Made by a program: the position numbers and the translations under genes. This document shows, piece by piece, positions 8,322-34,084 of a DNA stretch of 34,084 nucleotides (its first letter is position 1; each line of letters opens with the position of its first letter). The stretch lies in contig CACYTP010000019.1 in NCBI GenBank assembly GCA_902777385.1, forward strand, positions 1 through 34,084, read 5' to 3'. Source of the stretch: an uncultured bacterium. Lineage in GTDB: Bacteria > Cyanobacteriota > Vampirovibrionia > Gastranaerophilales > Gastranaerophilaceae. The notes below the pieces were generated by a model that was not told the DNA's origin, did no database searches, and was given only the letters and a program-made list of their open reading frames with translations.

Positions 8322-8322
8322 T

Positions 8323-14727: not shown

Positions 14728-14800
14728 ATGTGTATATATGCTATTAAATAAAATTTAATTAAAAATACAAATTATTAACGTAGTCAAGGAGTAACAAACA

Positions 14801-19088: not shown

Positions 19089-19090
19089 AA

Positions 19091-19672
19091 ATGGATATAA
19101 AAAACTACATAAAAAGTTCTATAAGTACAAAAGAACAAATTTTATTTGATGAAACAATAGTTAAGACAATAGAAGAAATAGCCTCTTCAATAGTAAATGC
19201 TTATAAAAACGGTTGCAAAGTTTTAACTGCAGGAAATGGTGGCTCAGCAGGAGATGCTCAGCATATAGCAGGAGAACTTGTATCTAAATTCTTTTTTGAT
19301 AGACCCGGATTAAGTGCATTTTCTCTTGCAACTGATACATCCATACTAACTGCAATAGGAAATGATTACGGCTATGAGAAATCATTTTCTAGACAAATTC
19401 AGGCAAATGCAAAAAATGGCGATGTTTTTATCGCAATTTCGACTTCTGGTAATTCTAAAAATATAATAATGGCACTTGAAGAGGCAAAGAAAAAAGGGGT
19501 TATTACCGTTGGTTTTGTTGGACAAAAACAATGCGAAATGGACAAATATTGTGATTATATAATTCACGTTCCGTCTTCCAGTACTCCTACAATTCAGGAG
19601 TCACACATAATGATTGGACATATAATTTGTGCATTAGTAGAAGAAAGTATTTTTAATAAGGTAGGTGTATAA
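19091..19672 (+). CDS. gmhA: Sedoheptulose-7-phosphate isomerase
   Basis: A 193-residue SIS-domain protein of normal GmhA length. AGNGGSAGDAQHIAGELVSK (about residues 46-65) is the phosphosugar-binding signature with the family's catalytic histidine region, and STSGNSKN near 117 is the second SIS loop. TPTIQESHIMIGHIICALVE near the end is the conserved C-terminal helix of GmhA. It converts sedoheptulose 7-phosphate to D-glycero-D-manno-heptose 7-phosphate in the cytosol, the first step of the heptose pathway. Its stop abuts the start of the kinase gene. Confidence 0.93.
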   Translation: MDIKNYIKSSISTKEQILFDETIVKTIEEIASSIVNAYKNGCKVLTAGNGGSAGDAQHIAGELVSKFFFDRPGLSAFSLATDTSILTAIGNDYGYEKSFSRQIQANAKNGDVFIAISTSGNSKNIIMALEEAKKKGVITVGFVGQKQCEMDKYCDYIIHVPSSSTPTIQESHIMIGHIICALVEESIFNKVGV

Positions 19673-20695
19673 ATGATAATTCGTGCAAAAGCTCCATTAA
19701 GAATAGGTTTAGCGGGTGGAGGAACAGATGTCAGTCCATACTGTGATAATTATGGCGGTTGTATTCTCAATGCGTGTATCAATATGTATGCTTATGCGAC
19801 TATTGAACCACGTAATGACGGAAAAATTGAATTCTGTTGTGAAGATAGAAATGCGAATAAAATATTTGATTCAGTTGACAAATTAGAGATAAATAACGAG
19901 TTTAGTTTATTAAAAGGTGTATATAATCGTATTGTTAAAGATTTTGTAAAAAAGCCTTTAAGTTTTACATTAACAACATATGTTGATGCCCCGGCAGGAA
20001 GTGGCCTAGGTTCATCATCAACACTTGTTGTAGCTATACTAAAAGCTTTTCAAGAATGGCTCAATTTACCATTAGGAGAATATGATTTAGCAAATTTGGC
20101 TTGGAGCATAGAGCGTGAAGATTTAAAGATGGCCGGTGGTAGACAAGACCAATATGCCGCAGCTTTTGGTGGATTTAATTTTATGGAATTTAAAGGAGAT
20201 AAAGTTCTAGTTAATCCTTTAAGGATAAAAAAAGAATATTTAAATGAATTAGAATTTAATATTTTACTGTACTATACAGGAACGAGTCGCCTTTCTGCCG
20301 AAATTATTGAATCACAGGTAAAAAACGCAACAAATAAAAATAAAGTTGCAATAGATGCTATGCATAACTTAAAAAAATCAGCATATGACATGAAAGAAGC
20401 TCTATTGACAGGTCAAGTTGACAGAATGGGAATATTACTAAACGAAGGTTGGGAAAATAAAAAGAAAATGTCATCTTCTATTTCTAATTCCGTTATTGAC
20501 AATATATATAATACTGCGACTAATGCAGGAGCAACAGGAGGTAAAATCTCTGGTGCTGGAGGCGGAGGATTCTTTATGTTTTATTGTCCACATAATGCAA
20601 GATATAAAGTAATACCTTCTCTGCAGGAATTAGGGGGAGAATTTAGAAGATTTAGATTTACAAATATAGGTGCTGAAAGTTGGACAGTTAATTAA
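19673..20695 (+). CDS. hddA: D-glycero-alpha-D-manno-heptose 7-phosphate kinase
   Basis: A 340-residue GHMP kinase. RAKAPLRIGLAGGGTDVSPY near the start and AGSGLGSSSTLVVA near residue 108 (the ATP-binding GHMP motif) are clear, as is the C-terminal KISGAGGGGFFMFYCP near 288. GRQDQYAAAFGG around 160 is typical of HddA. The enzyme phosphorylates the 7-phosphate at C1 to the alpha-1,7-bisphosphate, which GmhB then dephosphorylates for HddC. The alpha-specific kinase fixes the product as GDP-activated rather than ADP-activated heptose. It starts directly after the gmhA stop. Confidence 0.92.
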   Translation: MIIRAKAPLRIGLAGGGTDVSPYCDNYGGCILNACINMYAYATIEPRNDGKIEFCCEDRNANKIFDSVDKLEINNEFSLLKGVYNRIVKDFVKKPLSFTLTTYVDAPAGSGLGSSSTLVVAILKAFQEWLNLPLGEYDLANLAWSIEREDLKMAGGRQDQYAAAFGGFNFMEFKGDKVLVNPLRIKKEYLNELEFNILLYYTGTSRLSAEIIESQVKNATNKNKVAIDAMHNLKKSAYDMKEALLTGQVDRMGILLNEGWENKKKMSSSISNSVIDNIYNTATNAGATGGKISGAGGGGFFMFYCPHNARYKVIPSLQELGGEFRRFRFTNIGAESWTVN

Positions 20696-20716
20696 AATGA
20701 AGGTAGTCTAGTAGAA

Positions 20717-20791
20717 ATGCATATGTTAAACGTTAAAGAATTTATTAAAAATATTTTGTCTTTTAGGAATTCTGATGACAAAAATCCATAA
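20717..20791 (+). pseudogene. Out-of-frame N-terminal segment of the following transferase gene
   Basis: A 24-codon frame (MHMLNVKEFIKNILSFRNSDDK...) runs into the start of the next gene in another frame. Its end and that gene's beginning (IHKIITLFYIKIKFR) together resemble the leader 'NSxDKxHKIITxxxIKIKF' that I know from many surface-glycan proteins. Removing one A from the five-A run at 20780-20784 would join them. It may be an assembly indel, a mutation or a switchable A-tract. Confidence 0.45.
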
Positions 20792-22031
20792 AATAATTAC
20801 ATTATTCTATATTAAGATTAAATTTAGAATTAATCCGAAAATAAAAATATATAGGAAAAAACAGAAATCTTATATAAATAGGTATAACAAAATTTTAAAT
20901 ATTCTAAAACAAAAATCAAAAAATAATAAAATTAGGGTATGTTTTTTAGTTTCTGAATCTGCCAAGTGGAATGCTCAAAGCCTATATGATTTAATGGAAA
21001 AAAGTGATATTTTTGAACCGTTTATTTTGGTTACTAACTTATCATATAATGTATATTTCCAATCATACAAACAAATATTAGAATTTTACAAAACTTGTGC
21101 GAATAATGTTCAAGTTGGTTGGAATGATGAAACTAATGAATCAATTGATTTAAAATTATTCAATCCTGATATAGTATTTTACCAACAACCTTGGGGACTA
21201 TATGATAATCAGAGTGTAGAATATGTTTCCAATTTCGCCTTAACTTATTATTTTTCTTATGCCATGGGCGATGCTTTGCATACATTTAATTGGAATTTTG
21301 AAAACTTTTATTTGATTTTAAAAAATTATTTTGTATTTAGTAAATATGAAAAAAAATTATATACCGATAATTTAAAATTTAATCTCAATAATATTGTTGT
21401 TATTGGGCATCCAAAATTAGACACGTATAAAAATTATAAAGAAGAATATCATGAACATAAATACGTAATTTATGCTCCCCATCATTCTCTTGAAATTGAT
21501 TCATTAAATTATGCAACTTTTTTATGGAATGGAAAATATATTTTGGAATGGGCACAAAAACATCCTAATTTTGATTGGGTGTTTAAGCCTCACCCAAGGT
21601 TAAAACAAGCACTTATTTTAAATAATATTATGAGTGAGGAAGAAGTTAATAAATATTTTAACGAATGGCAAAATGTTGGTATTTTTTGTGACGAAGGTTC
21701 ATATTTTAATTTATTTAAAAATTCAAAATGTTTAATTACAGATTGTGGTTCATTTTTAGTTGAATATTTACCAACTAAACAGCCAGTTATACATTTAAGA
21801 AATCCAAAAGCAACTGACTATATTCCTGCAAGCAAAGTAGCTATGCAGTCTTATTATGATGTATGGAATATTAGAAATCTAGAAAAATGTTTAAATGATA
21901 TTTTGATTAATGGTATTGATACAAAAAAACAAGAACGTATGGATGCAATACGAAAATTAAATATAGAATCTTATAGTTGTGCAGAAAAAATTATAAATAC
22001 AATTAAAAATGAAATAGGAATAAGGAAATAA
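20775..22031 (+). CDS. CDP-glycerol glycerophosphotransferase-like protein
   Basis: A 418-residue protein with a very basic N-terminus (residues 1-60). The central region contains YVIYAPHHS near 235, and the C-terminal half has FDWVFKPHPRLKQAL and NSKCLITDCGSFLVEYLPTKQPVIHLRNPKA, the conserved stretches of the TagB/TagF-type CDP-polyol phosphotransferase fold. Such enzymes add glycerol phosphate or related polyol phosphates to a glycan or teichoic acid. The ATG at 20775 has AGGA upstream, but the true start may lie upstream in another frame. The next gene makes an activated small molecule that could be its donor. Confidence 0.78.
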   Translation: MTKIHKIITLFYIKIKFRINPKIKIYRKKQKSYINRYNKILNILKQKSKNNKIRVCFLVSESAKWNAQSLYDLMEKSDIFEPFILVTNLSYNVYFQSYKQILEFYKTCANNVQVGWNDETNESIDLKLFNPDIVFYQQPWGLYDNQSVEYVSNFALTYYFSYAMGDALHTFNWNFENFYLILKNYFVFSKYEKKLYTDNLKFNLNNIVVIGHPKLDTYKNYKEEYHEHKYVIYAPHHSLEIDSLNYATFLWNGKYILEWAQKHPNFDWVFKPHPRLKQALILNNIMSEEEVNKYFNEWQNVGIFCDEGSYFNLFKNSKCLITDCGSFLVEYLPTKQPVIHLRNPKATDYIPASKVAMQSYYDVWNIRNLEKCLNDILINGIDTKKQERMDAIRKLNIESYSCAEKIINTIKNEIGIRK

Positions 22032-22034
22032 ACA

Positions 22035-23639
22035 ATGAATAACTATGCAATAATTTTAGCAGCAGGAATAGGTAGTAGATTATATCCTTTAACGCAAGAG
22101 TATCCTAAATCACTTATAAAAGTTGATGGTAGAGAAATTCTTGATTATCAAATTCAAGGATACATTAAATCAGGAATAAAAGAAGAAAATATCTATATTG
22201 TAACAGGTTATAAACATGAAATGATTGTTGATTACCTAAAAAGTCATTATTCTAAGGTTAATGAAATATATAGTCCTGATTATTTAGTCACAAATAACAT
22301 GTACTCATTGTACCTCGGATTAAATGCTTTAAAAGATAAATTTGAGAATATTCTCCATTTATTTATAAATAATGCGGACTGTCTATATGATGAAAATTTA
22401 ATGGAAGAGTTTGTTAATTCGAAATATGAAAGTGCAATTGCTGTTGAAGTAGGAACATATAACGAAGAATCTATGAAAGTTGTGACAAGAAATGATAACA
22501 GTTTAGTTAATATATCAAAATCCATTTCTAAAGAGGATGCTTATGGTGTATCAATAGATTTGTATAAATACTCGAAAAAGTCAGTTATAAATTTATTGGA
22601 AATTATTAACGATTACATTGAAGTCAAAAAAGATCTAAAACAATGGACAGAAGTAGCCTTTCCACAATTATTTAAAAAAGAAAAAATTTATCCATATGAT
22701 ATAAAAAATAAAAATTGGGTTGAAGTTGATAATAATGAGGATTTACTTTTAGCCGATAAATTATTTTCGAAAATTGATTTGCGTAAGAAAAAAGTGATTA
22801 TTAGTGACTTGGATGGCACATTATATGTTGGTAGTAAACCTATAGAAAATGCAATAAAATATATTCAAGATACAAATTTTGATTGTTATTTTTTTACAAA
22901 TAATACTTCAAAAACCCCTGATGATTACATTAATAAACTTAATAATTTAGGTATAAATTGTAAAAATGAAAATATCCTAACACCACTCTACCCATTAATT
23001 AATTATTTGGAAGAAAAACAGTATAAATCAGTATATTTAGTTTCAACCCAAAAAGTTAAAGACTACTTTGTTACAAAACTTCCTAATATAAATTTCGAAT
23101 ATGACAAAAAAAATAATAAAGCTGTAATTTTAACCTATGATACTGAAATTGATTACAGTAAATTGTGCAATATTTGTTATTTATTACAAAATAAAGAAAT
23201 TGAATATTTAGCGACTCATCAAGATGTTTTTTGCCCTTCTGAAAATGGGAATATACCAGATATTGGCAGTTTTATTAAATTGTTAAAAACAACAACATAC
23301 AGAACACCAGATAAAACATTTGGGAAGCCTTCTACAAAACTTGTTGAACAATTATTAAAGAAATATAAAACAGAGCAAATATTTGTTGTGGGAGATAGAT
23401 TATACACTGACAAAGCATTAGCAGATAATATTGGTTGTGATTTTATTTGTGTTCTTTCTGGTGAAACTCAGAGATTAGACATTCAGAATTATAAAGATAA
23501 ATACCCAAGTTTAGTCGTTAAAGATATAAGTGAAATTTCTTATCTTGCCGATAATTCCAAAACGCAGATGGTTGTAGAGAGAGAGAGAGTAATATCCCTA
23601 ATAGCATATAAACGAATCAAATGTCAAAAAGTAGCATAA
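22035..23639 (+). CDS. Nucleotidyltransferase-HAD phosphatase fusion, possibly for a CDP-polyol
   Basis: A 534-residue two-domain protein. Residues 1-240 are a sugar-phosphate nucleotidyltransferase of LicC-like type (IILAAGIGSRLYPLTQEYPKSLIKVDG, and NNADCLYDE near 113). Residues 253-515 are a NagD-type HAD phosphatase (SDLDGTLYVGSKP near 257, FFTNNTSKTPDDY near 285, VVGDRLYTDKALADNIG near 449). In pneumococcal CDP-2-glycerol synthesis a nucleotidyltransferase (Gtp1) and a HAD phosphatase (Gtp3) work with a reductase (Gtp2). A fusion of the first two would fit here beside a CDP-glycerol-type transferase, but no reductase is seen. An (AG)7 run lies near the 3' end (23576-23589). Substrate is inferred only from context. 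Confidence 0.75.
   Translation: MNNYAIILAAGIGSRLYPLTQEYPKSLIKVDGREILDYQIQGYIKSGIKEENIYIVTGYKHEMIVDYLKSHYSKVNEIYSPDYLVTNNMYSLYLGLNALKDKFENILHLFINNADCLYDENLMEEFVNSKYESAIAVEVGTYNEESMKVVTRNDNSLVNISKSISKEDAYGVSIDLYKYSKKSVINLLEIINDYIEVKKDLKQWTEVAFPQLFKKEKIYPYDIKNKNWVEVDNNEDLLLADKLFSKIDLRKKKVIISDLDGTLYVGSKPIENAIKYIQDTNFDCYFFTNNTSKTPDDYINKLNNLGINCKNENILTPLYPLINYLEEKQYKSVYLVSTQKVKDYFVTKLPNINFEYDKKNNKAVILTYDTEIDYSKLCNICYLLQNKEIEYLATHQDVFCPSENGNIPDIGSFIKLLKTTTYRTPDKTFGKPSTKLVEQLLKKYKTEQIFVVGDRLYTDKALADNIGCDFICVLSGETQRLDIQNYKDKYPSLVVKDISEISYLADNSKTQMVVERERVISLIAYKRIKCQKVA
23576..23589 (+). repeat. (AG)7 dinucleotide run in the C-terminal coding part
   Basis: Seven AG units, read as VERER in frame, lie 50 bases before the stop. 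Gain or loss of a unit would change the last 16 or so residues and could alter coupling to the ABC transporter gene 16 bases downstream. Confidence 0.7.
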
Positions 23640-23654
23640 AAAAGGAAAAAGAAA

Positions 23655-25478
23655 ATGAAATTAGAAATGACAACAGCAAAAAACTCGTTTAAATACAGAT
23701 GGTTATTATCAAGAATTATGCCATATATTGCACCGTATTGGTTTAGGATTACACTCGGTTTTCTAGTCGCAATACCGTTAGGTTTATTAGATGGTGTAAC
23801 AGCTTTTGCACTAAAGCCATATATGGATTACGTAGTAGGCGGCAAGGCATTAGAATTTACATTTTTAAATAATGATATAACAATAACAAGTATTCAAATG
23901 GCATTTATTCTACCATTTGCCGTAATTTTATTTGCAGTTATTCAGGGTGTATTGAGATACTTAAACGGATATTTATCAAGTTGGACAAGTGCTCATATAA
24001 CTAACGATGTTAAATTCGATTTATTCAAAAGATTAGTACATATGCATCCTCAATTCTTTGATGAAAATTCATCAGGAATTATAATTTCTCGTTATATGGG
24101 TGATCCCGGTGCAGCATCAGCAGGAATTGTAGATAACATTAAAACAATTACAACAAGTTTATTTGGAGCTTTAGGGTTAATTGCAGTTATGCTATATAGT
24201 TCTTGGAAACTTGCAATAATTGGAGTTGTAGTTTTATGTGTTGCATTTTTACCTGTTGCTTTAATTAGAAAAAGAATAAAAGAAGCATCAAATAGAAGTA
24301 TGGTTATAGGCGGAAACATTACAACAAATATAAATGAAACCTATAACGGAAACAAAGTAATGGCGGCATATGGTCTGCAAGATAAAATGTATGATTATTT
24401 TGAAAAGCAAACTTGGGATGGCTATAACGTTGGGATGTCATTGTATAAACGTTCAGGTTGGATGTCTCCTTTGATGTATTTAATTGCATCTTGCGGTATC
24501 GCAACAGTTTTAGGTGTAGGTACATATTTGATTAACTCAGGTCAAATGACAGCCGGAAGTTTTGCATCTTTTGTAACTTCATTGTTACTTTTATATAAAC
24601 CTGTAAAAACATTAGGTAATACATTAACAGGTATTCAAGGAATATTTGTTGCAATGGGCAGGGTATTTGAATTGTTTGATTTAAAACCTGAAATTATAGA
24701 TTCACCTAATGCAAGAGAATTGCAAGGGTTAAATGAATCAATTAAATTTGAAAACGTAAACTTTGAATATATTCCAAATCAACCTGTATTGAAAAATTTG
24801 AATCTGACAGTTGCTAAAAATGAAACACTTGCAATAGTTGGCAATTCAGGTGGTGGAAAATCCACATTAGTAAATCTTATTCCGAGATTTTATGACATTA
24901 AATCAGGTGCAATAAAAATCGATGATGTAGATATTAGAGAATACACAATTGATTCTCTAAGACAAAATATTTCAATGGTATTTCAGGACAACTTCTTATA
25001 TTCAGGGACAATTAAAGAGAATATAATGATGGGCAACTTCAATGCAACTGCTGAAGATTTGCAACAAGCAATATATTCTGCACACCTGCAAGATATGATA
25101 AAAGAACTTCCTCAAGGATTAGAAACTATGCTTGGAGAACGTGGTTTAACTTTATCAGGCGGTCAAAGACAGAGAGTTGCAATTGCACGAGCAATGTTAA
25201 GAAACGCACCTATTGTAATTTTAGATGAGGCAACTTCAGCTCTTGATAACGAATCAGAGGCAATTGTTCAAAAGGCAATGGATAACTTGATGAAAGACAG
25301 AACAGTATTTATTATCGCTCACAGATTATCCACAATTAAGAATGCCGACAGAATCGCTGTAATCAATGAGGGAGAACTTGTTGAATTAGGAACTCACGAA
25401 GAATTGATGAATATTGAAAACGGTCAATATAAAGCTCTTTATGAAATGCAATTTAAGAAACAGGAGGTTAATGCATAG
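23655..25478 (+). CDS. MsbA-like ABC transporter (membrane domain fused to ATPase)
   Basis: A 607-residue half-transporter. Residues 20-330 hold about six membrane spans (for example YWFRITLGFLVAIPLGLLDG and LIAVMLYSSWKLAIIGVVVL). The ATPase domain has Walker A GNSGGGKST near 396, signature LSGGQRQRV near 500, and Walker B VILDEATSALD near 521, with the H-loop in IIAHRLSTI. It would act as a homodimer in the inner membrane. MsbA-type proteins flip lipid A or lipid-linked glycans; here it may export the glycan made by the neighbouring enzymes. Its TAG overlaps the GTG of the transketolase gene. Composition looks less AT-rich than the upstream glycosyltransferases. Confidence 0.88.
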   Translation: MKLEMTTAKNSFKYRWLLSRIMPYIAPYWFRITLGFLVAIPLGLLDGVTAFALKPYMDYVVGGKALEFTFLNNDITITSIQMAFILPFAVILFAVIQGVLRYLNGYLSSWTSAHITNDVKFDLFKRLVHMHPQFFDENSSGIIISRYMGDPGAASAGIVDNIKTITTSLFGALGLIAVMLYSSWKLAIIGVVVLCVAFLPVALIRKRIKEASNRSMVIGGNITTNINETYNGNKVMAAYGLQDKMYDYFEKQTWDGYNVGMSLYKRSGWMSPLMYLIASCGIATVLGVGTYLINSGQMTAGSFASFVTSLLLLYKPVKTLGNTLTGIQGIFVAMGRVFELFDLKPEIIDSPNARELQGLNESIKFENVNFEYIPNQPVLKNLNLTVAKNETLAIVGNSGGGKSTLVNLIPRFYDIKSGAIKIDDVDIREYTIDSLRQNISMVFQDNFLYSGTIKENIMMGNFNATAEDLQQAIYSAHLQDMIKELPQGLETMLGERGLTLSGGQRQRVAIARAMLRNAPIVILDEATSALDNESEAIVQKAMDNLMKDRTVFIIAHRLSTIKNADRIAVINEGELVELGTHEELMNIENGQYKALYEMQFKKQEVNA

Positions 25479-26281
25479 TGAATGAATTGATGCAAATCTG
25501 TATGCAAATAAGAATAGATATTTTGAAGATGATACATAATGCAAAATCAGGTCATCCGGGCGGAAGTTTGTCCTGCGTTGAAATATTAACTGCACTATAT
25601 AAGCAAGTTCTAAAATTTGACCCAAAAAATCCAAAAAGTGAAGAAAGAGACAGATTTGTTTTATCAAAAGGACATGCATCATCTGCATATTATGCAATAC
25701 TTGCAGAATGTGGGTATTTCCCAAAAGAAGAGCTTATGACTTTTCGTAAATTCGGCTCTCGATTACAAGGACATCCGTCAAATCTTTATTTAGATTGCGT
25801 AGAAGTCCCGACAGGTTCATTAGGTCAGGGATTATCAATGGCTTGTGGCATTGCAATATCTCTAAAATTGGATAAAAACCCTGCAAGTGTTTTTTGCCTG
25901 ATGGGAGACGGGGAATTACAAGAAGGTTCCTGTTGGGAAGCATTTATGAATGCGGATACAAGAAACTTAAACAATTTAATTGCGATAATTGACCGAAATA
26001 AGCTGCAAATTGATGGAAAAACAGAAAACATCAAAAAATTAGATAACCTTAAGCAAAAAATTGAAAGCTTTAATTGGAATGTCATTGAAGTTGACGGACA
26101 CGACATAAGTCAAATTACAAATGCTTGTTTAAAGGCAAAAGAAAGTGATAAACCAACTGCAATTATTGCAAACACTATAAAAGGCAAAGGAGTTTCATTT
26201 ATGGAAGATAATACCGGTTGGCACGGGAAAGCTCCAAATGATGAAGAATTGAGTCTTGCATTGAAAGAGTTGGAGGTGTAA
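25478..26281 (+). CDS. Transketolase, N-terminal subunit
   Basis: A 267-residue protein starting at GTG 25478, overlapping the transporter stop. It carries the thiamine diphosphate part of transketolase: NAKSGHPGGSLS near residue 22, SKGHASSAYYAIL near 65, TGSLGQGLSMACGIA near 110, and GDGELQEGSCWEAF (about 143-156), whose motif ends in NKLQIDG. Together with the next gene it forms a split transketolase. It exchanges two-carbon units between sugar phosphates and so makes sedoheptulose 7-phosphate. That compound is the substrate of GmhA encoded 6 kb upstream in the same operon. It overlaps the next ATG by one base. Confidence 0.92.
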   Translation: MNELMQICMQIRIDILKMIHNAKSGHPGGSLSCVEILTALYKQVLKFDPKNPKSEERDRFVLSKGHASSAYYAILAECGYFPKEELMTFRKFGSRLQGHPSNLYLDCVEVPTGSLGQGLSMACGIAISLKLDKNPASVFCLMGDGELQEGSCWEAFMNADTRNLNNLIAIIDRNKLQIDGKTENIKKLDNLKQKIESFNWNVIEVDGHDISQITNACLKAKESDKPTAIIANTIKGKGVSFMEDNTGWHGKAPNDEELSLALKELEV

Positions 26282-27240
26282 TGGTGACTGCATTAATGGA
26301 ATTAAAATCATTAAGAAAAGCATATGGTGAAACTCTGGTTGAATTAGGTTCAGAAAATAAAAATATTGTTGTTTTGGATGCAGATGTTTCATCATCAACT
26401 CAGACAAAAATGTTTGCTCAAAAATTTCCAAACAGATTCTTTAATTCAGGAATTGCAGAGCAGGATATGATTACTACAGCCGCAGGTTTGGCATCTCAGG
26501 GAAAAATTCCTTTTGTTTCAACTTTTGCAATGTTTGCGACTGGAAGAACTTATGATCAAATAAGAAATTCTATTTGTTATTCAAAATTCAATGTAAAAAT
26601 AGTTGCAACCCATGGCGGTGTAACTGTTGGTGAAGACGGAGCAAGCCATCAGGCACTTGAAGATATTGCTTTAATGCGTAATCTCCCGAATATGACAGTC
26701 ATTGTTCCTGCTGATTATAATGAATGCCGACAAGCTATAAAATATGCTGTTGAAAATGAAAGACCAATGTATATAAGAATCCCAAGAATTAATTTGCCGG
26801 ACATTTTTGATAATTCTTATAAGTTTACTCTTACTGCAAAAGTAGTTGAAAAAGGAGATGATATTTCAATAATATCCAATGGAGATACGTTAATTGAATC
26901 AATAAAAGCCGGACAAATGCTAAAACAAAAAGGAATATCTGCACAAATAATTCATTGTCCTGTAGTTAAACCTATTGATAAAAATATTTTAAAGTTGATA
27001 TCTAACTGCAAAAATAAAATGTTATTTACTGTTGAAAATCACTCTATTGTTGGAGGATTAGGAAGTGCAATTTCTGAATTAATAACAGATGAAGGGCTTG
27101 GATTAAAGCTTGTTCGTATTGGTGTTAATGATCAATTTGGACAAAGTGGAACAGCTGAAGAACTTCTTGATTATTACGGGATATCAGCAATTAAAATTTC
27201 AGAAAAGGTAATTTATGAAATGAAAACAACGATTTTATAA
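26281..27240 (+). CDS. Transketolase, C-terminal subunit
   Basis: A 319-residue protein carrying the pyrimidine-binding and C-terminal domains of transketolase. FFNSGIAEQDMITTAAGLAS near residue 53 holds the catalytic glutamate (AEQ). THGGVTVGEDGASHQALEDIALMR near 117 and the following NLPNMTVIVPAD are further signature stretches, and the C-terminal domain is complete to the end. Start ATG 26281 overlaps the stop of the N-terminal subunit, which suggests fixed stoichiometry through coupling. The mate is encoded directly upstream. Split transketolases are common in bacteria; placement in a glycan cluster points to heptose supply. Confidence 0.92.
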   Translation: MVTALMELKSLRKAYGETLVELGSENKNIVVLDADVSSSTQTKMFAQKFPNRFFNSGIAEQDMITTAAGLASQGKIPFVSTFAMFATGRTYDQIRNSICYSKFNVKIVATHGGVTVGEDGASHQALEDIALMRNLPNMTVIVPADYNECRQAIKYAVENERPMYIRIPRINLPDIFDNSYKFTLTAKVVEKGDDISIISNGDTLIESIKAGQMLKQKGISAQIIHCPVVKPIDKNILKLISNCKNKMLFTVENHSIVGGLGSAISELITDEGLGLKLVRIGVNDQFGQSGTAEELLDYYGISAIKISEKVIYEMKTTIL

Positions 27241-27300
27241 AAATGAAATAATAATAAATACTGAATTTAAAAAAATAAATATCAACCAAAAAGGAAAATA

Positions 27301-28077
27301 ATGATAGATATAATAGAATTTCATATAGTAGAGCATTGCAACTTAAACTGCAAAGGATGTATTCATTTTAGTCCTTTGGCAGACAAAAGTTTTGTAAAAA
27401 TGAAAAACTTCAAATCAGATGTTAAGAATATCGCTGATCTAACCAAAGGAAAAGTTAGAGAAATACACATACTTGGTGGTGAGCCATTACTTCATCCTGA
27501 ATTAAATAAAATATTAAAAATTACAAGATTTTATTTTAAAGACAGCCAAATTAGATTGATATCAAATGGTGTCCTTCTATTAAGTATGAATCTTGCTTTT
27601 TGGCAAACATTAAGAAATAGCAGAATTCATTTATCTGTAACAGAATATCCTTTAAATATAAATTATAAAGCTATTTCTCATTTAACCAAAAAATATAATA
27701 TAGAATTTTCTTTTTATGCATTAAGCAAAGAAAATTCTCAATGGCATTTCCCGATAGATATCACAGGAAGCCAAGATGAACAATACAGCTTTGATAACTG
27801 TAGAAAAGGAAACAATTGTACAAATATAAATATAATAAATGGAAAATTATATATGTGTCCAATTTGTGCAAATATAAAGTATTTTAATAAATATTTTAAT
27901 AAAGACTGTATTGTTGATGATAAAGATTTTTTAAGAGTAAGAAGCATAAAAGATGTTGGTGAAATAGAAGATTTTGTATCAAAGCCTTCCCCGTTTTGTA
28001 GATACTGCAACGTTAAAGACCGAACGTTTGATAACAAATGGGATATTTCACAGAAAAAAATAGAGGAATGGGTGTGA
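27301..28077 (+). CDS. Radical SAM protein with a Cys-rich C-terminus
   Basis: A 258-residue protein with Cys13-x3-Cys17-x2-Cys20 (EHCNLNCKGC), the site of the radical SAM 4Fe-4S cluster, followed by HILGGEPLLHPEL near 59 (GGEP motif that binds SAM). Its C-terminal half has more cysteines (CRKGNNC, CPICAN, FCRYC), similar in style to SPASM-type auxiliary clusters. Proteins of this kind occur in glycan clusters, but I cannot name the substrate. A 60-base AT-rich gap separates it from the transketolase genes. It may modify a sugar or a peptide. Confidence 0.78.
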   Translation: MIDIIEFHIVEHCNLNCKGCIHFSPLADKSFVKMKNFKSDVKNIADLTKGKVREIHILGGEPLLHPELNKILKITRFYFKDSQIRLISNGVLLLSMNLAFWQTLRNSRIHLSVTEYPLNINYKAISHLTKKYNIEFSFYALSKENSQWHFPIDITGSQDEQYSFDNCRKGNNCTNINIINGKLYMCPICANIKYFNKYFNKDCIVDDKDFLRVRSIKDVGEIEDFVSKPSPFCRYCNVKDRTFDNKWDISQKKIEEWV

Positions 28078-28102
28078 ATATCATAGTGTAACAGGTGTAA
28101 AT

Positions 28103-28315
28103 ATGAACAAAGAACTGACAAACAGAGAAAAGGAAGTAATGAGATATGTTTGCAAAGGTTATACAAATAAAGAAATCGGAGAAACTATATATGTGACTGA
28201 AAATACTGTAAAAAAGCATATGGAATCAATATTAGAAAAATTACATGTAAGAAATAGAACAGAAGCTGTCTATGACCTGATGTTAGAAGAAGTTACAATC
28301 AGTCAAAAATCTTAA
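28103..28315 (+). CDS. Single-domain LuxR/GerE-type DNA-binding regulator
   Basis: A 70-residue protein that is just a LuxR-type helix-turn-helix: LTNREKEVMRYVCKGYTNKEIGETIYVTENTVKKHMESILEKLHVRNRTEA (about residues 5-55). There is no receiver or ligand domain, as in GerE of Bacillus (74 residues). It probably binds DNA as a dimer and may control the glycan operon or the following gene. It sits at the operon's end, before the degenerate recombinase. Confidence 0.82.
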   Translation: MNKELTNREKEVMRYVCKGYTNKEIGETIYVTENTVKKHMESILEKLHVRNRTEAVYDLMLEEVTISQKS

Positions 28316-28325
28316 AAATAGGAGG

Positions 28326-28342
28326 TATCTGTTTAACAGATA
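28326..28342 (+). promoter_or_regulatory. 17-bp palindrome between ribosome-binding site and start codon
   Basis: TATCTGTTTAACAGATA is a perfect palindrome with one central base. GGAGG ends at 28325 and the next ATG is at 28349, so the SD-start distance is 23 bases, too long unless the palindrome folds. Folding would leave about 6 bases between them. It could instead be an operator for the adjacent regulator or recombinase-like protein. Confidence 0.5.
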
Positions 28343-28348
28343 GTTAAA

Positions 28349-28876
28349 ATGGCAAAAATATTACCAATAAAAAAAGTAAAAGATATAAAACGAATAAAGA
28401 ATAAATACAGGGAAAAAGAACTGTATTATGATTTATTGCTTTTCTTATTGGCAATAAATACAGGTTTAAATACAGCCACTCTATTTAACATAAAAGTTAA
28501 ACAATTAAAAAGAAAAAAATATCTTGTGGTTAAGAAAGGAATATCATACAACCTAAATAATGAAATCTGTGAATTAATCAATGTTGTTTGTAAAGGGAAA
28601 GATCCTACAGATTTAGTTTTTGCAAAGCAAATTAGGAACAATGTCTCAAGGCATAGTTACTACACAAATTTTAAAGACATTTGTGCAGAATTAAATATTT
28701 ATAATGCCTCAATTGATTCTTGGAGAAGGACTTTTGGGTATCATCATTATTTAGCACATAAAGATTTATTCTTTTTGCAATGGTATTTCAATCAAAATAC
28801 AGCTGAACAGGCAATGGAATATATAGACATACACGAACCTATGAGTTCAGGCTTTAGAGAGGGCTTAAACTTGTAG
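28349..28876 (+). CDS. Tyrosine-recombinase-like protein with degraded active site
   Basis: A 175-residue relative of the recombinase at 11378-11920, sharing the fold pattern and the RRTFGYHHY stretch. Aligned by eye, the first catalytic Arg (GLR in the other) is Asn (NTGLNTATL), the His of H-x-x-R is Asp (IDSWRRTF) and the later His (NHSS) is Gln (NQNT). The second Arg and Tyr (MEYIDI) remain, as does a Lys in the VVKKG region. It is therefore unlikely to cut DNA and may bind it as a regulator, or be a decaying gene with an intact frame. The ribosome-binding site is unusually far (see the palindrome at 28326). It ends the plus-strand island. Confidence 0.75.
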   Translation: MAKILPIKKVKDIKRIKNKYREKELYYDLLLFLLAINTGLNTATLFNIKVKQLKRKKYLVVKKGISYNLNNEICELINVVCKGKDPTDLVFAKQIRNNVSRHSYYTNFKDICAELNIYNASIDSWRRTFGYHHYLAHKDLFFLQWYFNQNTAEQAMEYIDIHEPMSSGFREGLNL

Positions 28877-28916
28877 ATTCAAATAAAAGTTTTTAATACT
28901 TAATTTCGTTATTTCT

Positions 28917-28945
28917 CTGGGAGATATTTTTCTCCCAGTTTTCTT
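28917..28945. terminator. Bidirectional terminator between convergent genes
   Basis: CTGGGAGA (28917-28924) pairs with TCTCCCAG (28931-28938) across a 6-base loop. TTTTCTT follows on the plus strand. It sits between the recombinase-like gene (plus) and the S24 repressor gene (minus), so it serves both ends, more strongly the plus side. Confidence 0.75.
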
Positions 28946-29600
28946 ATATTCTTTTCATTGCACTTATAACTTGCCCAACAACTGCAAATTGTTTTGTTTT
29001 ATCTATTTCAAATGGTTCATAATCTTTATTGAATGAAATCGCTGTTATGCCTTCAGCCGTTTTCTTTAATTGCTTACAATATAATTCTGAATCATAAACA
29101 AAGGCATAAACTTTGCCATTATTTATGTAGGTTTTAGATTCATCAACAATTAAGGCATCCCCGGATTCAATCCTATCTGCCATACTATCACCTCGTGCAA
29201 ATACAACGGAAACTGTTTTAGGATTTCCTCCGAATTTTCTAATAAAATTAATATTAAATTCGATCGTATCTGAAACAAAATCTGCGTTTGTAGAAGAACC
29301 TGTACCGCAACTTAATTCAACCTCTGTTCTCACAGGAACTTGAACAATTGAGTCATTTATAACTGCAACATTTAACATCTTTGTTGGAAGTCCGTTATCC
29401 TCTAACCACACCCTCAACATATCGCTTTCTTTCTTAGAAAGTTTACTATCTCTATTAATCCTCTGACCTATGTTTTGTTTCGTGCTTCCGATAATAACTG
29501 CAAGTTGTTTCTTTTCAAAATTAGGATTAAACTTCAGGATTTCTTCATAGCAATATTTGACTGTAGTGCTTGTCTGTTCTGTTTTTGCGTACTTTGGCAT
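28944..29600 (-). CDS. LexA/CI-like repressor with S24 peptidase domain
   Basis: A 218-residue repressor. Residues 15-70 are a helix-turn-helix-like region (KKQLAVIIGSTKQNIGQRINR). Cys98-Gly99 (ELSCGTG) fits the self-cleavage site of this family, which is Ala-Gly in LexA and Cys-Gly in UmuD. Ser139 (RGDSMADRI) and Lys176 (LYCKQL) are the catalytic pair. RecA filaments formed after DNA damage would trigger self-cleavage and so relieve repression. It is divergent from the small gene and polymerase across an inverted-repeat operator, so it likely controls both and itself. Confidence 0.9.
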   Translation of the reverse strand: MPKYAKTEQTSTTVKYCYEEILKFNPNFEKKQLAVIIGSTKQNIGQRINRDSKLSKKESDMLRVWLEDNGLPTKMLNVAVINDSIVQVPVRTEVELSCGTGSSTNADFVSDTIEFNINFIRKFGGNPKTVSVVFARGDSMADRIESGDALIVDESKTYINNGKVYAFVYDSELYCKQLKKTAEGITAISFNKDYEPFEIDKTKQFAVVGQVISAMKRI

Positions 29601-29628
29601 AATGACCTCTTGACATTTTTTAGATTAT

Positions 29629-29660
29629 TAGTAAACTATTATTATACAAATAGTTTACTA
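29629..29660. promoter_or_regulatory. 12-bp inverted-repeat operator between repressor and polymerase genes
   Basis: TAGTAAACTATT (29629-29640) and AATAGTTTACTA (29649-29660) are perfect inverted copies with an 8-base centre. A minus-strand -10 (TATAAT, 29646-29641) lies in the centre, and a plus-strand TTGACA (29610-29615) with TAAACT (29632-29637) overlaps the left arm. This is the likely binding site of the S24 repressor, acting on promoters in both directions. A partial copy of the half-site (CAAACTAT) lies near 29678-29685. Confidence 0.65.
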
Positions 29661-29709
29661 TATCAAATTTAATTTTGCAAACTATCTCGACTATCAAGAA
29701 AGGAAATAT

Positions 29710-29931
29710 ATGTTTGATGCCCATGGACAAAAAGTTGATGCTCGTTATCAACTCATACAAATGAAAAACTGTGAGCGGATAGTTAAATTCAAAACTGCAA
29801 GCATAGACTCTGCTCTTGGTTATCTTCAATGGCACATCCGAAAATATAAACGAGGACTTTTATTAGAAGTTTCTTTATTGAAAAAAATATACGACTGGCG
29901 GACAAAATCGGTGAGATATTCTTATGAGTAA
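29710..29931 (+). CDS. Small protein co-encoded with the Y-family polymerase
   Basis: A 73-residue basic protein (MFDAHGQKVDARYQLIQMKN...) with RBS AAAGGAAA and an 8-base overlap with the polymerase start. I do not recognise it. Small YolD-like proteins often accompany UvrX/UmuC-type polymerases, so an accessory role in translesion synthesis is a guess from context. It would be the first gene expressed when the S24 repressor is cleaved. Confidence 0.6.
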   Translation: MFDAHGQKVDARYQLIQMKNCERIVKFKTASIDSALGYLQWHIRKYKRGLLLEVSLLKKIYDWRTKSVRYSYE

Positions 29932-31141
29932 ATATATTGCTCTCGTTGACTGCGACAGTTTCTTTTGTAGTTGCGAGAGAAAGTTAAATCCTGAATTAAA
30001 CTGCAAACCTCTCTGTGTTGTATCAAGTGAGAGAGGGTGTGTTATTGCTCGTTCCAAAGAGGCAAAAGCAATGGGGATTAAGATGGGCGATCCTTTATTT
30101 AAAGCCGTTGAAGAACATCCGAATTGTATTTATATGGTCGCAAACCACCACAATTATTTAGCAATATCAAAACAAATAATGTATATTCTAAAAGATTTAA
30201 GTCCGAATGTAGAGATTTATTCTATTGATGAGGCTTTCGTTGATGTGACGGGACTCGTCAAAGTTTATAATAAAAATTACTATACAATGGCAAAATACAT
30301 TCAGGACAGAATTTGGAACGAAGTTGGTATGCCGGTTAGTATTGGAATAAGCCGTTCAAAAACTCTCGCTAAACTTGCATCTGATAGAGCCAAAACAACA
30401 AAAGACAGGATTATTTTATTAGGTAAATCAAAATCTAAAAAATACCTGCAAGATGTAGATGCATCAGAGGTGTGGGGAATTGGAGGAAGATTAACTTTAA
30501 GACTTCAAAGGTTCGGTATAAGAACTGCAAGCGAATTCGTAAGCAAAGATGACGAGTGGATGAAGAGAAACTTTGGCAAGAACGGATTAACCACTAAATA
30601 TGAATTATTAGGTCATTCCGTAATTCCGATTGTAAATAATCCACCACCGCCAAAATCTATCTGCGACACACAGTCGTTTCCTGAATTTACATCAGACTTT
30701 GATTATATTAAGAATGAACTGCAAGTTCATATTCACTCTGCATGCCGGAGACTTCGTCAGGCAGGATGTAAATGTAATACGATTGGGGTTATTGTAAAAA
30801 CAAAAGATTTTAAATGCGGTTTTTTGGAAGCTAAACTTGAAAACCCGACTGATTTTGAATTGAACATATCTAAAACGGCATTTGAACTTTTAGAAATGAT
30901 GTACTCTCCGAGTATCCTTTATAGGAGCGTTGGCATACTTTTAGAAGATTTTAATATAACTGCAAATGAACAACTTAATCTCTTTGAGGATCAAGTTAAG
31001 AAAGAAAAGAGCGAACGGCTTGGTAAGGCTATCGATAGAATTGAGGAACGATTCGGTCGTAATAAAATAAAGGTAGGTTTCACTAATAAGGATGTTCCTA
31101 ACAAACAGGGATTTATGACTTCACCAACTTTAATTTATTAA
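29924..31141 (+). CDS. Y-family DNA polymerase (UmuC/UvrX-like)
   Basis: A 405-residue translesion polymerase. Metal-binding residues are seen in VDCDSFF (Asp9, Asp11) and SIDEAF (Asp102, Glu103). GISRSKTLAKLASDRAK near 144 and WGIGGRLTLRLQRFGI near 185 are the palm and thumb/HhH parts. QLNLF near residue 350 is a good beta-clamp-binding motif. The enzyme copies damaged DNA and causes mutation. It lies under the S24 repressor operator, so it is SOS-like regulated; phage and plasmid versions (UvrX, RumB, ImpB) are arranged the same way. Confidence 0.9.
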   Translation: MSKYIALVDCDSFFCSCERKLNPELNCKPLCVVSSERGCVIARSKEAKAMGIKMGDPLFKAVEEHPNCIYMVANHHNYLAISKQIMYILKDLSPNVEIYSIDEAFVDVTGLVKVYNKNYYTMAKYIQDRIWNEVGMPVSIGISRSKTLAKLASDRAKTTKDRIILLGKSKSKKYLQDVDASEVWGIGGRLTLRLQRFGIRTASEFVSKDDEWMKRNFGKNGLTTKYELLGHSVIPIVNNPPPPKSICDTQSFPEFTSDFDYIKNELQVHIHSACRRLRQAGCKCNTIGVIVKTKDFKCGFLEAKLENPTDFELNISKTAFELLEMMYSPSILYRSVGILLEDFNITANEQLNLFEDQVKKEKSERLGKAIDRIEERFGRNKIKVGFTNKDVPNKQGFMTSPTLIY

Positions 31142-31145
31142 GATA

Positions 31146-31175
31146 TTGATTTATTTTGCTATTATTATATATAAT
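31146..31175 (+). promoter_or_regulatory. Promoter of the HU gene
   Basis: TTGATT (31146-31151) and TATAAT (31170-31175) are spaced by 18 bases. They lie about 45 bases before the HU start, after the polymerase gene ends. The leader carries a small hairpin at 31182-31196 (TCCTC/GAGGA) ahead of the ribosome-binding site AAAGGGG. Confidence 0.7.
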
Positions 31176-31218
31176 TAATTATCCTCGTGGTGAGGAGTAA
31201 ATAAGAAAGGGGACTATA

Positions 31219-31491
31219 ATGAACAGAGAAGAATTAGTTGCTGAAATTGCAAAGGTAGCAAAAGTTTCAAAAAAAGAAGCAGGTGAAGTTTTAACTGCAA
31301 CAATCGATACTATCGAAAAAACAGTTAAAAAAGGTGAAAAAGTAACATTAGTCGGTTTCGGTACTTTTGAACGTAGACAACGTGCTGCTAGAACAGGCAG
31401 AAACCCTCAAACAGGTGCTACTTTAAAAATTGCCGCTAAAAAAGTTCCTGCATTCTCAGCAGGTAAAAAATTCAAAGAATTAGTAAAATAG
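31219..31491 (+). CDS. hup: HU-family histone-like DNA-binding protein
   Basis: A 90-residue protein of standard HU length. The start MNREELVAEIAKVAKVSKKEAGEV and the DNA-arm residues GRNPQTG (about 61-67) with KVPAFSAGKKFKELV at the end are classic. It bends and compacts DNA as a dimer. The gene has its own promoter and a strong terminator, so it is a separate unit. It could be the chromosomal HU or a phage-borne copy; base composition and flanking genes do not settle this. Confidence 0.96.
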   Translation: MNREELVAEIAKVAKVSKKEAGEVLTATIDTIEKTVKKGEKVTLVGFGTFERRQRAARTGRNPQTGATLKIAAKKVPAFSAGKKFKELVK

Positions 31492-31511
31492 TTCTTTTTG
31501 AAAAATACTTA

Positions 31512-31552
31512 AAAAGTGTCGGATTTATTGATAAATTCGACACTTTTGTTAT
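31512..31552 (+). terminator. Intrinsic terminator of the HU gene
   Basis: A 16-bp stem (31512-31527 with 31532-31547, one G-T pair) with loop TTGA is followed by TTTTGTTATTTTTAT. The A-run at the stem's base also allows some activity on the other strand. Confidence 0.85.
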
Positions 31553-31992
31553 TTTTATACTTTGTACAGGAATTGACAGGATTTTTAGTAAAAAATGTGT
31601 ACATTAAAACGATAATCTAAATGTTTAGTTGCCCGAAAGAGTCAAACTAGGTGTTAAAGTTATCCTTTCCATGTGTTCTTTTACAGTAAGAGTGAAGTGA
31701 GCGATAAATTAAACAATAAAAAGTTTGCGAAAACATCAAGCTGTTCGCAGGACATATGTAGTAAGACAATCAGTTTGACAGAGATGGTTAGTTTGATAAT
31801 TTTTAGCAAAGTCCGCTCGTTGTAGGGATTTTGACGGTCGGAAGCAGGTTGATTTAAAAAATATCAAACTAATCTTTCTTGCACTTTATCTTCATTTTAA
31901 CTGCTCGCACTTTCACTTTATTTTCAATACTTTTCGGCAGTTTGATAGTTTACGGTTAGTTTGATATTTTACGGCGATGTAAAAATAAAAAA
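31553..31992. other. Non-coding region with six AGTTTGA motifs, iteron-like
   Basis: I see no gene in these 440 bases. AGTTTGA followed by T or C occurs on the plus strand at 31772, 31790, 31939 and 31958, and on the minus strand at 31641-31649 and 31862-31873. GGTTAGTTTGATA is exact at 31786-31798 and 31954-31966. The last two copies are nearly tandem, with an 18-19-base period (CGG...TTTA). A hairpin GCGAA...TTCGC is at 31727-31747. TTGACA occurs at 31573 without a good -10. The stretch could be a replication origin, a transposase- or regulator-binding array, or encode a structured RNA. Confidence 0.6.
31772..31966. repeat. Cluster of TTAGTTTGATA repeats
   Basis: Within this span are four plus copies (CAGTTTGACA, GGTTAGTTTGATA, CAGTTTGATA, GGTTAGTTTGATA) and one minus copy (TATCAAACTAAT at 31862-31873). 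Spacing is irregular (18, about 72, about 76, 19), with two closely spaced pairs at the ends and the inverted copy midway. Confidence 0.7.
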
Positions 31993-32202
31993 TCATTTTT
32001 CGTTATCAATAAAAAATGCATTTAATAAATCTGCGTTTTCTCTTAAATTTTTAATCACAGGTGCAAGGTTGTAACATTCTTCTATTTCAGGTTGATTGCT
32101 AACGAAATAATCAACGATAACGGCTATATTATAAACATTTTCTGCCCATTTACTAATCTGTTTAAATTCTTTATTTGTAATATTGTATCCTATTTCTTCC
32201 AT
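31993..32202 (-). CDS. Small protein of unknown function
   Basis: A 69-residue acidic protein (MEEIGYNITNKEFKQISKWAENVYNIAVIVDYFVS...) with a good ribosome-binding site (AGGAG, 7 bases before ATG). It is predicted mostly helical and has one cysteine. It lies 90 bases downstream of the restriction gene on the same strand. No family is recognised and no function is assigned. The repeat-rich stretch begins just beyond its stop. Confidence 0.6.
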   Translation of the reverse strand: MEEIGYNITNKEFKQISKWAENVYNIAVIVDYFVSNQPEIEECYNLAPVIKNLRENADLLNAFFIDNEK

Positions 32203-32292: not shown

Positions 32293-34084
32293 TTATAGCT
32301 TACTCATAGCTTCGTTAAATTGAGCTTGTCTATCGGCAACATTAAAGAATGGGAATCCTATTATCTTATAATTGTTATCATCTATAAGTGTTTTAACAGG
32401 TCTTCCAGATTCTTCAATCTGTAATAAAAATTCTTCTTTCCATGTATTGGTCTGTAATGTTACCTTCTTGTTTTGTCATAATAAGAACATAATCTGGTTC
32501 AAAGCGTTCACCACCATTAAATGAGAATAACTTTAATTGTCTTTCATTTCTTATTAGATATACCTTATCATATTTGTTCTTTAAGTCTTGAACGTGGTCT
32601 TTGAAGTATGCAACAAATTCCTTTTCTTCACTTGTTCCGTAATTATCGGTAAATACAAACCAGTCTTCATTAGAAAGATTAACTTTCAAGTGTTCTGATA
32701 TTGCACCATGTGATTGTGATACACCTTGACCGTCTCCATGAGGGTCAGTATAACTTACAGTCTTATCTCTGAATACTTCACATAGTTTTCTAGGCTTAAA
32801 TTCCTTTGTTCCTTCGTAAGTTTCTTCAATGTCTGAGATTCTATTTGATATTTTACCTAAAGTATATTTCAAGGCTAAATATAACTGTTCATTAGTAATA
32901 TCAGATTCACTAATTCTTATACTCAGCTTGATATTCCCTAAATACTTAGAATCCGTTATGAATTGTTTAATTGATGTTAGATTAGGATAATATTGTTTAA
33001 GTATATTGAATTTAAAAATATTATACTGTCTTAAAGCCTTATGCACGATAGGATAAGGAATATTAGAAATAACAAATTCTTTCAAGATTCCTCTTTCTCC
33101 TGTGCTTGTGTCATCTGCTGAACTTTCCAATAAGGTAGTTGTGCTTGAAGCACCTGCTGATAGGTCGTAACTATATATTGTATCTCTGACAGACGGTAAA
33201 AGTTCAGTTATTGTATTTCTTGATTTAACAGCTCTTTCATTTTCAAAGACTAAACCATGTTTATATAGGTTATCATTCTTGAATTCTTCTTTAAGGATAT
33301 AAGGACATTCTTTGATGTTATCTGGCATTAAGCCAATACCTCTCATAGCTGTTGTAAGTTCTGAGATATATGTGGAATTATTCATACAATGGTAATAGAG
33401 AGTCTCACAAACTCTTAATTCATTTTCTATATCTTCATCAAACTTACGCAAGAATCTTTCTGCTTTATCCGTAGTTGTGAATGGACAATATCTTGCACCA
33501 CGACCAATTAATTGTGCTTCTTGAATAGTTTGTTTTCCCGGACCGCCATGTCTTTCTGCACTTCTTGTTTCATAAAGTCTAACTATATCAAACAAGTTAA
33601 GAACATCCCAACCTTCATTTAATTGGTCAACAGCAAAGATACAGCGAATCAGATTGTTTCTGTCTTCTAAAGAGTTAATCTGTAATTGATAATTTCCTTT
33701 GTCTTCTTTACTGTTTACTGAAACACATTTCTCATCAGAAAAGTCTTCTCTGATTTCTGCAATCAGTTCTTCTGTTGTTAAATGTTTGTCAAAGTATTCA
33801 AACATCTTAACAAGTAACGGATGATTATTCTGTGTTCTAATTCTTGTTAAATCCGCTTCTGATAGGTTCTCAATAAGCGGTCTGAATTGTTCTGTGTAGA
33901 AGCTCTTACTTGATTCTATCTTATCACTTTTAAATAAGATTACAGGCTTAATAGTTTTCTTATTATCTTGAAACAGCTTTAATCTGTACTGACTTAATAG
34001 TATTGCTTGTAATACTCTGTCAATTAAAGGTACATGAGATTGAAAAGTCTTAACTTCCTTTGAATAACGGTCTTCTCTAAACTT
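32293..34084 (-). pseudogene. Type III restriction enzyme R subunit (C-terminal part), frameshifted near the end
   Basis: The frame is open from the right edge (34084) to a stop at 32414, about 556 residues, and the gene starts outside the window. AVDQLNEGWDVLNLFDIVRL and QLIGRGARYCPF are SF2 helicase motifs V and VI. FEPDYVLIM near the end is the start of the PD-(D/E)xK nuclease core; the usual following E-x-K segment (often IFIEPKG) is not visible. Between about 32450 and 32475 the frame changes: NTWKEEFLLQIEESGRPVKTL and FFNVADRQAQFNEAMSKL, a credible end, continue in the +1 frame to a stop at 32293. So the nuclease is probably dead, or this is an assembly indel. No methylase gene is in view. 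Confidence 0.65.

What the first reader, a model, noticed from the sequence alone, without database searches (positions are those of the whole stretch)
31641..31966. Six-copy AGTTTGA(T/C) array in both orientations in a gene-free stretch
The motifs include two exact 13-base copies (GGTTAGTTTGATA), near-tandem pairs and inverted copies, with no gene over 440 bases. This is how iteron origins, transposase end-sites of Mu-like phages or regulator arrays look. It may mark a prophage end or a plasmid-like origin, which would make the element a phage-plasmid.
Basis: partly seen in the sequence, partly recalled or inferred. Interest (0 to 1): 0.6.

Follow-up and report, generated by a model that had tools for sequence, protein, structure and literature searches.

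The report
Two tRNA-targeting transposon ends, back-to-back
The repeated motif marks the ends of two mobile elements sitting side by side behind a tRNA gene in a gut bacterium, a virus that inserts by transposition and a related element that carries a restriction enzyme; it is not a replication origin, and it points to a little-known family of tRNA-seeking viruses and defence-carrying elements.

Summary
In detail: six AGTTTGAY in 326 bp, against at most three in 1000 shuffles. It is not one array but two transposon ends, 71 bp apart. Window 1-31685 is the right part of a ~58-kb Mu-like prophage. Its left end is on contig C3, 92 bp after a tRNA-Gly gene. The contigs overlap inside one terminase gene, and a 5-bp target duplication (GTAAG) flanks the prophage. 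Motif 1 lies in the prophage right end. Motifs 2-6 form the transposase-side end (31757 to ~31976) of a second element, here carrying a small ORF and a type III restriction gene. The same end starts elements behind tRNA-Gly and tRNA-Asp in relatives; the tRNA-Asp one is 3158 bp with 5-bp duplications and no transposase gene. In close relatives the same sites lie directly before a MuA/TniA-like transposase. Homologues of that transposase sit behind a tRNA, always in the same orientation, in 35 of 63 loci (0.4% control). Many such phages encode a second, Mu-type transposase 3.9 kb downstream. Trans-mobilisation of the defence element is inferred, not shown.

The parts
1..31685 (+). right-hand ~31.7 kb of a ~58-kb Mu-like prophage (the left-hand 26.3 kb is on contig C3:26281-1)
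   Evidence: Mu-like head and tail genes. C19:1 and C3:1 overlap within one TerL gene. 5-bp duplication GTAAG at both outer ends.
31561..31585 (+). subterminal 25-mer TTTGTACAGGAATTGACAGGATTTT of the prophage right end; two related copies lie before the first transposase gene on C3
   Evidence: 25-bp match at 96% to C3:25982-26006; conserved in G130:C8; also before MuA2
31641..31648 (-). motif 1 (AGTTTGAC), inside the prophage right end
   Evidence: right-end segment 31561-31695 conserved at 91% in G130:C8 and, more weakly, in many relatives
31685..31685 (.). last base of the prophage (...TTCTTTTACA)
   Evidence: TSD match and comparison with uninterrupted post-tRNA sequences
31686..31690 (.). 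5-bp target-site duplication GTAAG (other copy C3:26282-26286)
31691..31756 (+). host spacer, part of a module found uninterrupted downstream of tRNA-Gly, -Arg, -Leu and -Ser genes in relatives
31757..31976 (+). transposase-side (left) end of element A, starting 5'-TGTAGTAAGACAATCAGTTTGACAG; holds motifs 2-6
   Evidence: same start behind tRNA-Gly in G074 and tRNA-Asp in G097. Same sites directly before MuA1-like genes in G061 and G027.
31772..31779 (+). motif 2 (terminal site)
31786..31798 (+). motif 3, exact GGTTAGTTTGATA
31862..31874 (-). motif 4, inverted GATTAGTTTGATA
31939..31946 (+). motif 5
31954..31966 (+). motif 6, exact GGTTAGTTTGATA
31993..32202 (-). 69-aa conserved small ORF of these elements; two-helix hairpin predicted (pLDDT 91), function unknown
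   Evidence: 24 relatives in alignment A2, model, recurrent beside R-M cargo
32414..34084 (-). type III restriction enzyme gene (res), cargo of element A; cut by the contig end
   Evidence: PADLOC REase_III 6.8e-50; the frame runs to 34081 at 1.2e-60
28944..31491 (.). S24 repressor, UmuC-like polymerase and HU genes at the prophage right end
   Evidence: UmuC 93% identical in a deletion derivative next to the same transposase

Best explanation
The motif is the core of a ~22-bp transposase-binding site of a MuA/TniA-family transposase. The cluster consists of two element ends lying back to back. One is the right end of a Mu-like prophage (ends at 31685, one motif). The other is the transposase-side end of a second element, A (starts at 31757, five motifs), which carries a small ORF and a type III restriction gene. 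Both were inserted, in the same orientation, within ~165 bp of host sequence behind one tRNA-Gly(GCC) gene. Proposed mechanism: a transposase (MuA1), its TniB-like ATPase and perhaps the third protein X1 bind these arrays, pair the two ends and insert the element 3' of a tRNA gene with a 5-bp duplication. Element A has probably lost its transposition genes and would be moved in trans by a relative such as the neighbouring prophage. Shown: the prophage ends, the TSD, the contig overlap, the start of element A, the same array before transposase genes, the tRNA association, and a transposase-free complete relative of A. Inferred: protein-DNA binding, the role of X1, trans-mobilisation, present-day activity, and that A in this genome lacks a transposase, since its far end is off the contig.
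For: Prophage: left end C3:26281, 92 bp after tRNA-Gly; right end 31685; GTAAG on both sides. C3 and C19 overlap in one TerL gene. The two flanks joined match uninterrupted post-tRNA sequence in several relatives. Element A: the conserved block begins at 31756/31757 behind tRNA-Gly in G074 and behind tRNA-Asp in G097. The G097 copy is 3158 bp with TTAGT on both sides and no transposase gene. The same sites lie directly before MuA1-like genes in G061 and G027, whose MuA1 is 93-94% identical to this genome's. Two further MuA1 elements have 5-bp duplications, TCACT and TTTAA. tRNA association: 35 of 63 MuA1 loci within 800 bp, all 35 in the same orientation, against 0.4% in random positions of the same loci. 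MuA1 matches rve and Mu-transpos_C, and TnsB in the PDB; its partner matches TniB. PMC8649781 describes arrays of ~20-bp transposase sites as the mark of Tn7-like ends.
Against: No binding or transposition experiment exists. Only one end of element A is in the assembly; a search for its far end by pattern found nothing in this genome, so its own TSD could not be tested. The G074 copy of A does not show a clean TSD. The motif in the prophage right end is a single copy and could be chance within that end. 28 of 63 MuA1 loci have no tRNA within 800 bp upstream; some of these lie behind other insertions. The uninterrupted sites used for comparison lie behind other tRNA genes, because the module recurs.
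Confidence: 0.88

Rival explanations
1. All six motifs belong to one element: the prophage extends past 31685 and the array is simply its own right end.
For: The motif occurs on both sides of 31685 and the distance is short.
Against: GTAAG duplication exactly at 31686-31690. The spacer 31691-31756 is found uninterrupted behind tRNA genes in relatives that lack a phage there. The block from 31757 exists alone behind other tRNA genes.
Confidence: 0.05
2. Iteron-type replication origin of a plasmid or phage-plasmid.
For: Clustered repeats in a gene-poor AT-rich stretch.
Against: Repeats are unevenly spaced and in both orientations. The site is chromosomal and behind tRNA genes in relatives. No Rep-like match among the proteins searched. 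The same array is fixed at transposon ends.
Confidence: 0.02
3. Operator array for a repressor that controls the transposase and neighbouring genes.
For: The arrays lie upstream of transposase genes in many loci. In phage Mu itself, repressor and transposase recognise overlapping DNA (general knowledge).
Against: The same sites occur at the far (right) ends of elements, away from the transposase promoter, and in elements without a transposase. The shared TTGTACAGGAATTGACA repeats next to MuA1 and MuA2 are better operator candidates.
Confidence: 0.08
4. A structured non-coding RNA or intergenic repeat without a role in transposition.
For: AT-rich intergenic sequence with inverted motifs.
Against: No Rfam match. 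The block ends exactly at TG and at 5-bp duplications, which structured RNAs do not predict.
Confidence: 0.02

Closest known systems
Ends of Tn7-like transposons (Tn7, Tn5053, Tn552, CASTs)
   Same: Arrays of ~20-bp sites in both orientations near the ends, 5-bp duplication, one orientation behind a 'safe' site, defence genes as cargo. Insertion downstream of tRNAs is also described for Tn7-like elements (PMC8649781; CyCAST homing 30-33 nt downstream of tRNA-Leu, PMC10293859).
   Different: No TniQ/TnsD was recognised; the third gene encodes a winged-helix protein of unknown family. The full element is a Mu-like phage. PMC8649781 found no Tn7-like transposase homologues in viruses.
Mu-like transposable phages
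   Same: Mu transposase (DDE_2), MuB-like ATPase, GemA, Mu-like head/tail genes, TG...CA ends and 5-bp duplication.
   Different: Carries a second, TniA/TniB-like transposition module and lies behind tRNA genes in one orientation, whereas Mu inserts nearly at random (general knowledge).
Phage satellites with defence genes (PICI-like)
   Same: Relatives of element A carry the same transposases, a TerS-like gene and defence cargo, but no virion genes.
   Different: Move by transposition rather than by an integrase; helper dependence and packaging untested; element A in the window shows no TerS gene up to the contig end.

Membership tests
Tn7-like transposon | array of ~20-bp transposase sites at both ends | tested here: met
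   Five sites at the A left end; right-end sites in G097 and G074 copies. In this window only one end of A is present.
Tn7-like transposon | 5-bp target-site duplication | tested here: met
   GTAAG, TTAGT, TCACT, TTTAA in four elements. For the window's own element A not testable, as its far end is missing.
Tn7-like transposon | TnsB/TniA-type transposase and TnsC/TniB ATPase | tested here: met
   rve and Mu-transpos_C (rve below Pfam's cut-off), TnsB hit in PDB, TniB over cut-off, in the prophage and relatives; none seen in element A itself.
Tn7-like transposon | TniQ/TnsD target selector | tested here: inconclusive
   No TniQ match for X1 or in the genome, but the control search rang in no genome, so absence is not shown.
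Mu-like transposable phage (the prophage) | MuA with DDE_2 domain, MuB ATPase, GemA | tested here: met
   C3:20019-21989, 19154-20032, 18541-18987
Mu-like transposable phage (the prophage) | Mu-type virion genes | tested here: met
   Gp36, Gp37, sheath, tube, portal, protease
Mu-like transposable phage (the prophage) | near-random insertion | tested here: not met
   35 of 63 relatives sit behind tRNA genes in one orientation
Phage satellite | depends on a helper phage for mobilisation and packaging | not testable with these tools
   Only suggested by the absence of transposase and virion genes in the 3158-bp G097 copy
Iteron plasmid origin | regularly spaced direct repeats with an adjacent rep gene | tested here: not met
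   Irregular spacing, both orientations; neighbouring genes are HU, a small ORF and a restriction gene

The most novel reading that the evidence does not exclude
Candidatus Gastranaerophilales harbour a family of transposable phages that combine two transposition modules. A TniA/TniB-like module with a winged-helix third protein homes behind tRNA genes; a classical Mu module drives replication. Transposase-less elements built from the same ends carry anti-phage systems and ride on the phage's transposase, stacking behind the same tRNAs. The window would then capture such a phage and its defence-carrying parasite side by side.
Probability: 0.45. Interest if true: 0.8.

Novelty: new variant of a known kind. 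Interest (0 to 1): 0.6.

Why it matters
Terminal arrays of transposase sites, tRNA-proximal insertion and defence cargo are each known for Tn7-like transposons, but I found no report of them in a Mu-like phage or in this bacterial order. If the two modules divide homing and replication between them, the system offers a natural test of how one transposable phage switches between a safe lysogenic site and lytic transposition. If the defence elements use the phage's transposase, they would be transposable phage satellites, a way for restriction systems to spread at the expense of the virus that moves them. The exact end sequences given here make both ideas testable.

Tried and rejected
Rfam search of the window: no match. 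Far end of element A in this genome, by a right-end pattern: none. A second piece of the type III restriction gene elsewhere in the assembly: none. TniQ in the genome: none, but uninformative because the controls were silent too. X1 fold: only its N-terminal winged helix is matched; the C-terminal part was not tested alone. Small ORF fold: only generic two-helix hairpins (Rop-like, E > 1), so no function is inferred. An automatic search for end pairs with TSD gave mostly noise; two pairs (G104, G009) were kept because the right ends also resemble each other. At first I took the right end to be at 31580, at the TTGTACAGG repeat; the TSD and relatives moved it to 31685. One NCBIfam call failed on a wrong frame and was not repeated. 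Papers: six searches found tRNA-proximal Tn7-like elements, but nothing on dual-transposase phages or on Gastranaerophilales mobile elements; subscription journals and preprints are largely not held.

Full report
Observation. The six AGTTTGAY motifs and the two exact 13-mers are present as described. No 326-bp stretch in 1000 dinucleotide shuffles held more than three motifs, against six observed. The exact 13-mer occurs only twice in the 2.32-Mb genome; one of six one-mismatch copies lies on contig C3, upstream of a MuA-like transposase gene. The window is the whole of contig C19. The host order is Candidatus Gastranaerophilales, judged from the named records that hold close relatives of the transposase.

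What lies left of the array. Window 1-31685 is the right part of a Mu-like prophage: capsid E, Gp36, Gp37, tail sheath, tube, portal, protease and minor head genes, then a polysaccharide gene cluster, then S24 repressor, UmuC-like and HU genes. Its left part is on contig C3. C3:1 and C19:1 overlap inside one terminase large-subunit gene (residues 3-138 on C19, 106-450 on C3). The left end, TGTATTTTAATGACC..., is at C3:26281, 92 bp after tRNA-Gly(GCC). The right end...TTCTTTTACA, is at 31685. GTAAG flanks both. When the flanks are joined with one GTAAG removed, the result aligns along its length with uninterrupted sequences behind tRNA-Gly, -Arg, -Leu and other genes in relatives. So the prophage inserted there with a 5-bp duplication, as Mu does.

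What the array is. Motif 1 lies within the last 45 bp of the prophage, a right end that is 91% conserved in G130:C8, where a shrunken copy of the element lies behind tRNA-Phe. After a 66-bp host spacer, a second element begins at 31757 with TGTAGTAAGACAATCAGTTTGACAG and holds motifs 2-6. The block 31757-32292 recurs as a unit behind tRNA-Gly in G074 and tRNA-Asp in G097. The G097 copy is complete: 3158 bp, TTAGT on both sides, one large ORF and the small ORF, no transposase. In G061 and G027 the same site arrangement lies directly before a transposase gene 93-94% identical to the N-terminal part of this genome's MuA1. Across more distant relatives the architecture (direct site, inverted site within ...CGGTCGGAAG..., then further direct sites) is kept while the site letters drift with the transposase, for example GATGGTGTGATTATTTCGGGCAA or AACGGATAAAACGATTATTTGGC. 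That is what transposase-binding ends should look like.

Target. Of 63 distinct MuA1 loci with enough upstream sequence, 35 have a tRNA gene within 800 bp upstream, all 35 with the tRNA 3' end facing the element; random positions in the same loci give 0.4%. Many tRNA types are used (Gly, Phe, Ser, Met, Asn, Ala, Arg, Asp), so a shared feature of tRNA genes, not one isoacceptor, is probably recognised. Four elements show 5-bp duplications: GTAAG, TTAGT, TCACT, TTTAA. Several loci hold two elements in tandem behind one tRNA, as here.

Machinery. MuA1 (664 aa) matches rve and Mu-transpos_C and, weakly, TnsB of a CAST in the PDB; PHROGs places it with phage transposases. Its neighbour matches TniB. 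The third gene, X1, evolves faster and has an N-terminal winged helix; no TniQ similarity was found, which does not exclude it. In 24 of 45 loci with more than 7 kb of sequence downstream, a second transposase lies 2-7 kb downstream, mostly near +3.9 kb; in this genome it carries the Mu DDE_2 domain and is followed by a MuB-like ATPase and GemA. A second class of elements keeps both transposases but has a TerS-like gene, the small ORF and other cargo in place of GemA and virion genes. Element A looks like a reduction of that class: end, small ORF, defence cargo. Cargo next to this small ORF or these ends includes type I, II, IIG and III restriction systems and a PrrC-like protein.

How it most likely works. 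MuA1 binds the arrays, pairs left and right ends, and with the TniB-like ATPase inserts the element behind a tRNA gene. That step, the choice of target by X1, and the use of a phage's MuA1 by element A are inference from anatomy. The prophage next door has a MuA1 closely related to those found with A-like ends, so it is the natural candidate helper, but its own left end differs somewhat in sequence, and compatibility is untested.

Known or new. Terminal arrays as Tn7-like boundaries, tRNA-proximal safe sites and defence cargo are described (PMC8649781, read; PMC10293859; PMC11656645). PMC8649781 also states that no Tn7-like transposase homologues were found in viruses. I found no description of a Mu-like phage with two transposition modules homing to tRNA genes, nor of transposase-less defence elements with its ends, within an open-access library. 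I therefore call it a new variant of a known kind. The array itself is an ordinary transposon end; the interest lies in what it belongs to.

Noticed in passing
window 12320-28077: About 16 kb of polysaccharide-type genes (glycosyltransferases, sugar nucleotide and heptose-like enzymes, MsbA-like transporter, transketolase-like pair) inside the prophage. Annotation mostly from reading the translations; only some were searched.
   Followed up: partly
window 11378-11920 and 28349-28876: Two small tyrosine recombinases (180 and 175 aa) bracket the polysaccharide cluster. The same pair recurs close together near MuA1 elements in L181 and L191, so they may handle cargo insertion.
   Followed up: partly
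C3:18541-25904 (L043); L132, L137, L139, L135: Two different transposase modules in one phage, MuA1-TniB-X1 then MuA2-MuB-GemA, with constant spacing in divergent relatives.
   Followed up: yes
C3:22532-23224 (L043:7532-8224 minus): X1, a fast-evolving winged-helix protein, third in the module in most loci examined; candidate target selector without recognisable TniQ similarity.
   Followed up: partly
window 31691-31756; L090, L091, L092, L261-L265: A conserved module (...GGATTTTGGCAAGAGTG-AGTGAGCG...GTTTGCGAAAA...GCTGTTCGCAGGAC...) recurs behind many different tRNA genes, in some places with partial copies of the tRNA 3' end. Its nature is unknown.
   Followed up: partly
C2:170872-171300, C27:19504-20031, L193, L197, L200, L201, L232: TerS-like genes without a terminase large subunit or virion genes nearby, in elements with restriction or other cargo; reminiscent of phage satellites.
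   Followed up: partly
window 8248-9273 and 10072-10890: PAPS-reductase-like and Dam-like methylase genes among the head genes of the prophage.
   Followed up: no
L086 (G061:C68), L081 (G130:C8 6530-7763): Internal-deletion derivatives of the phage that keep both ends, one joining the 5' part of MuA1 to the 3' part of UmuC.
   Followed up: partly
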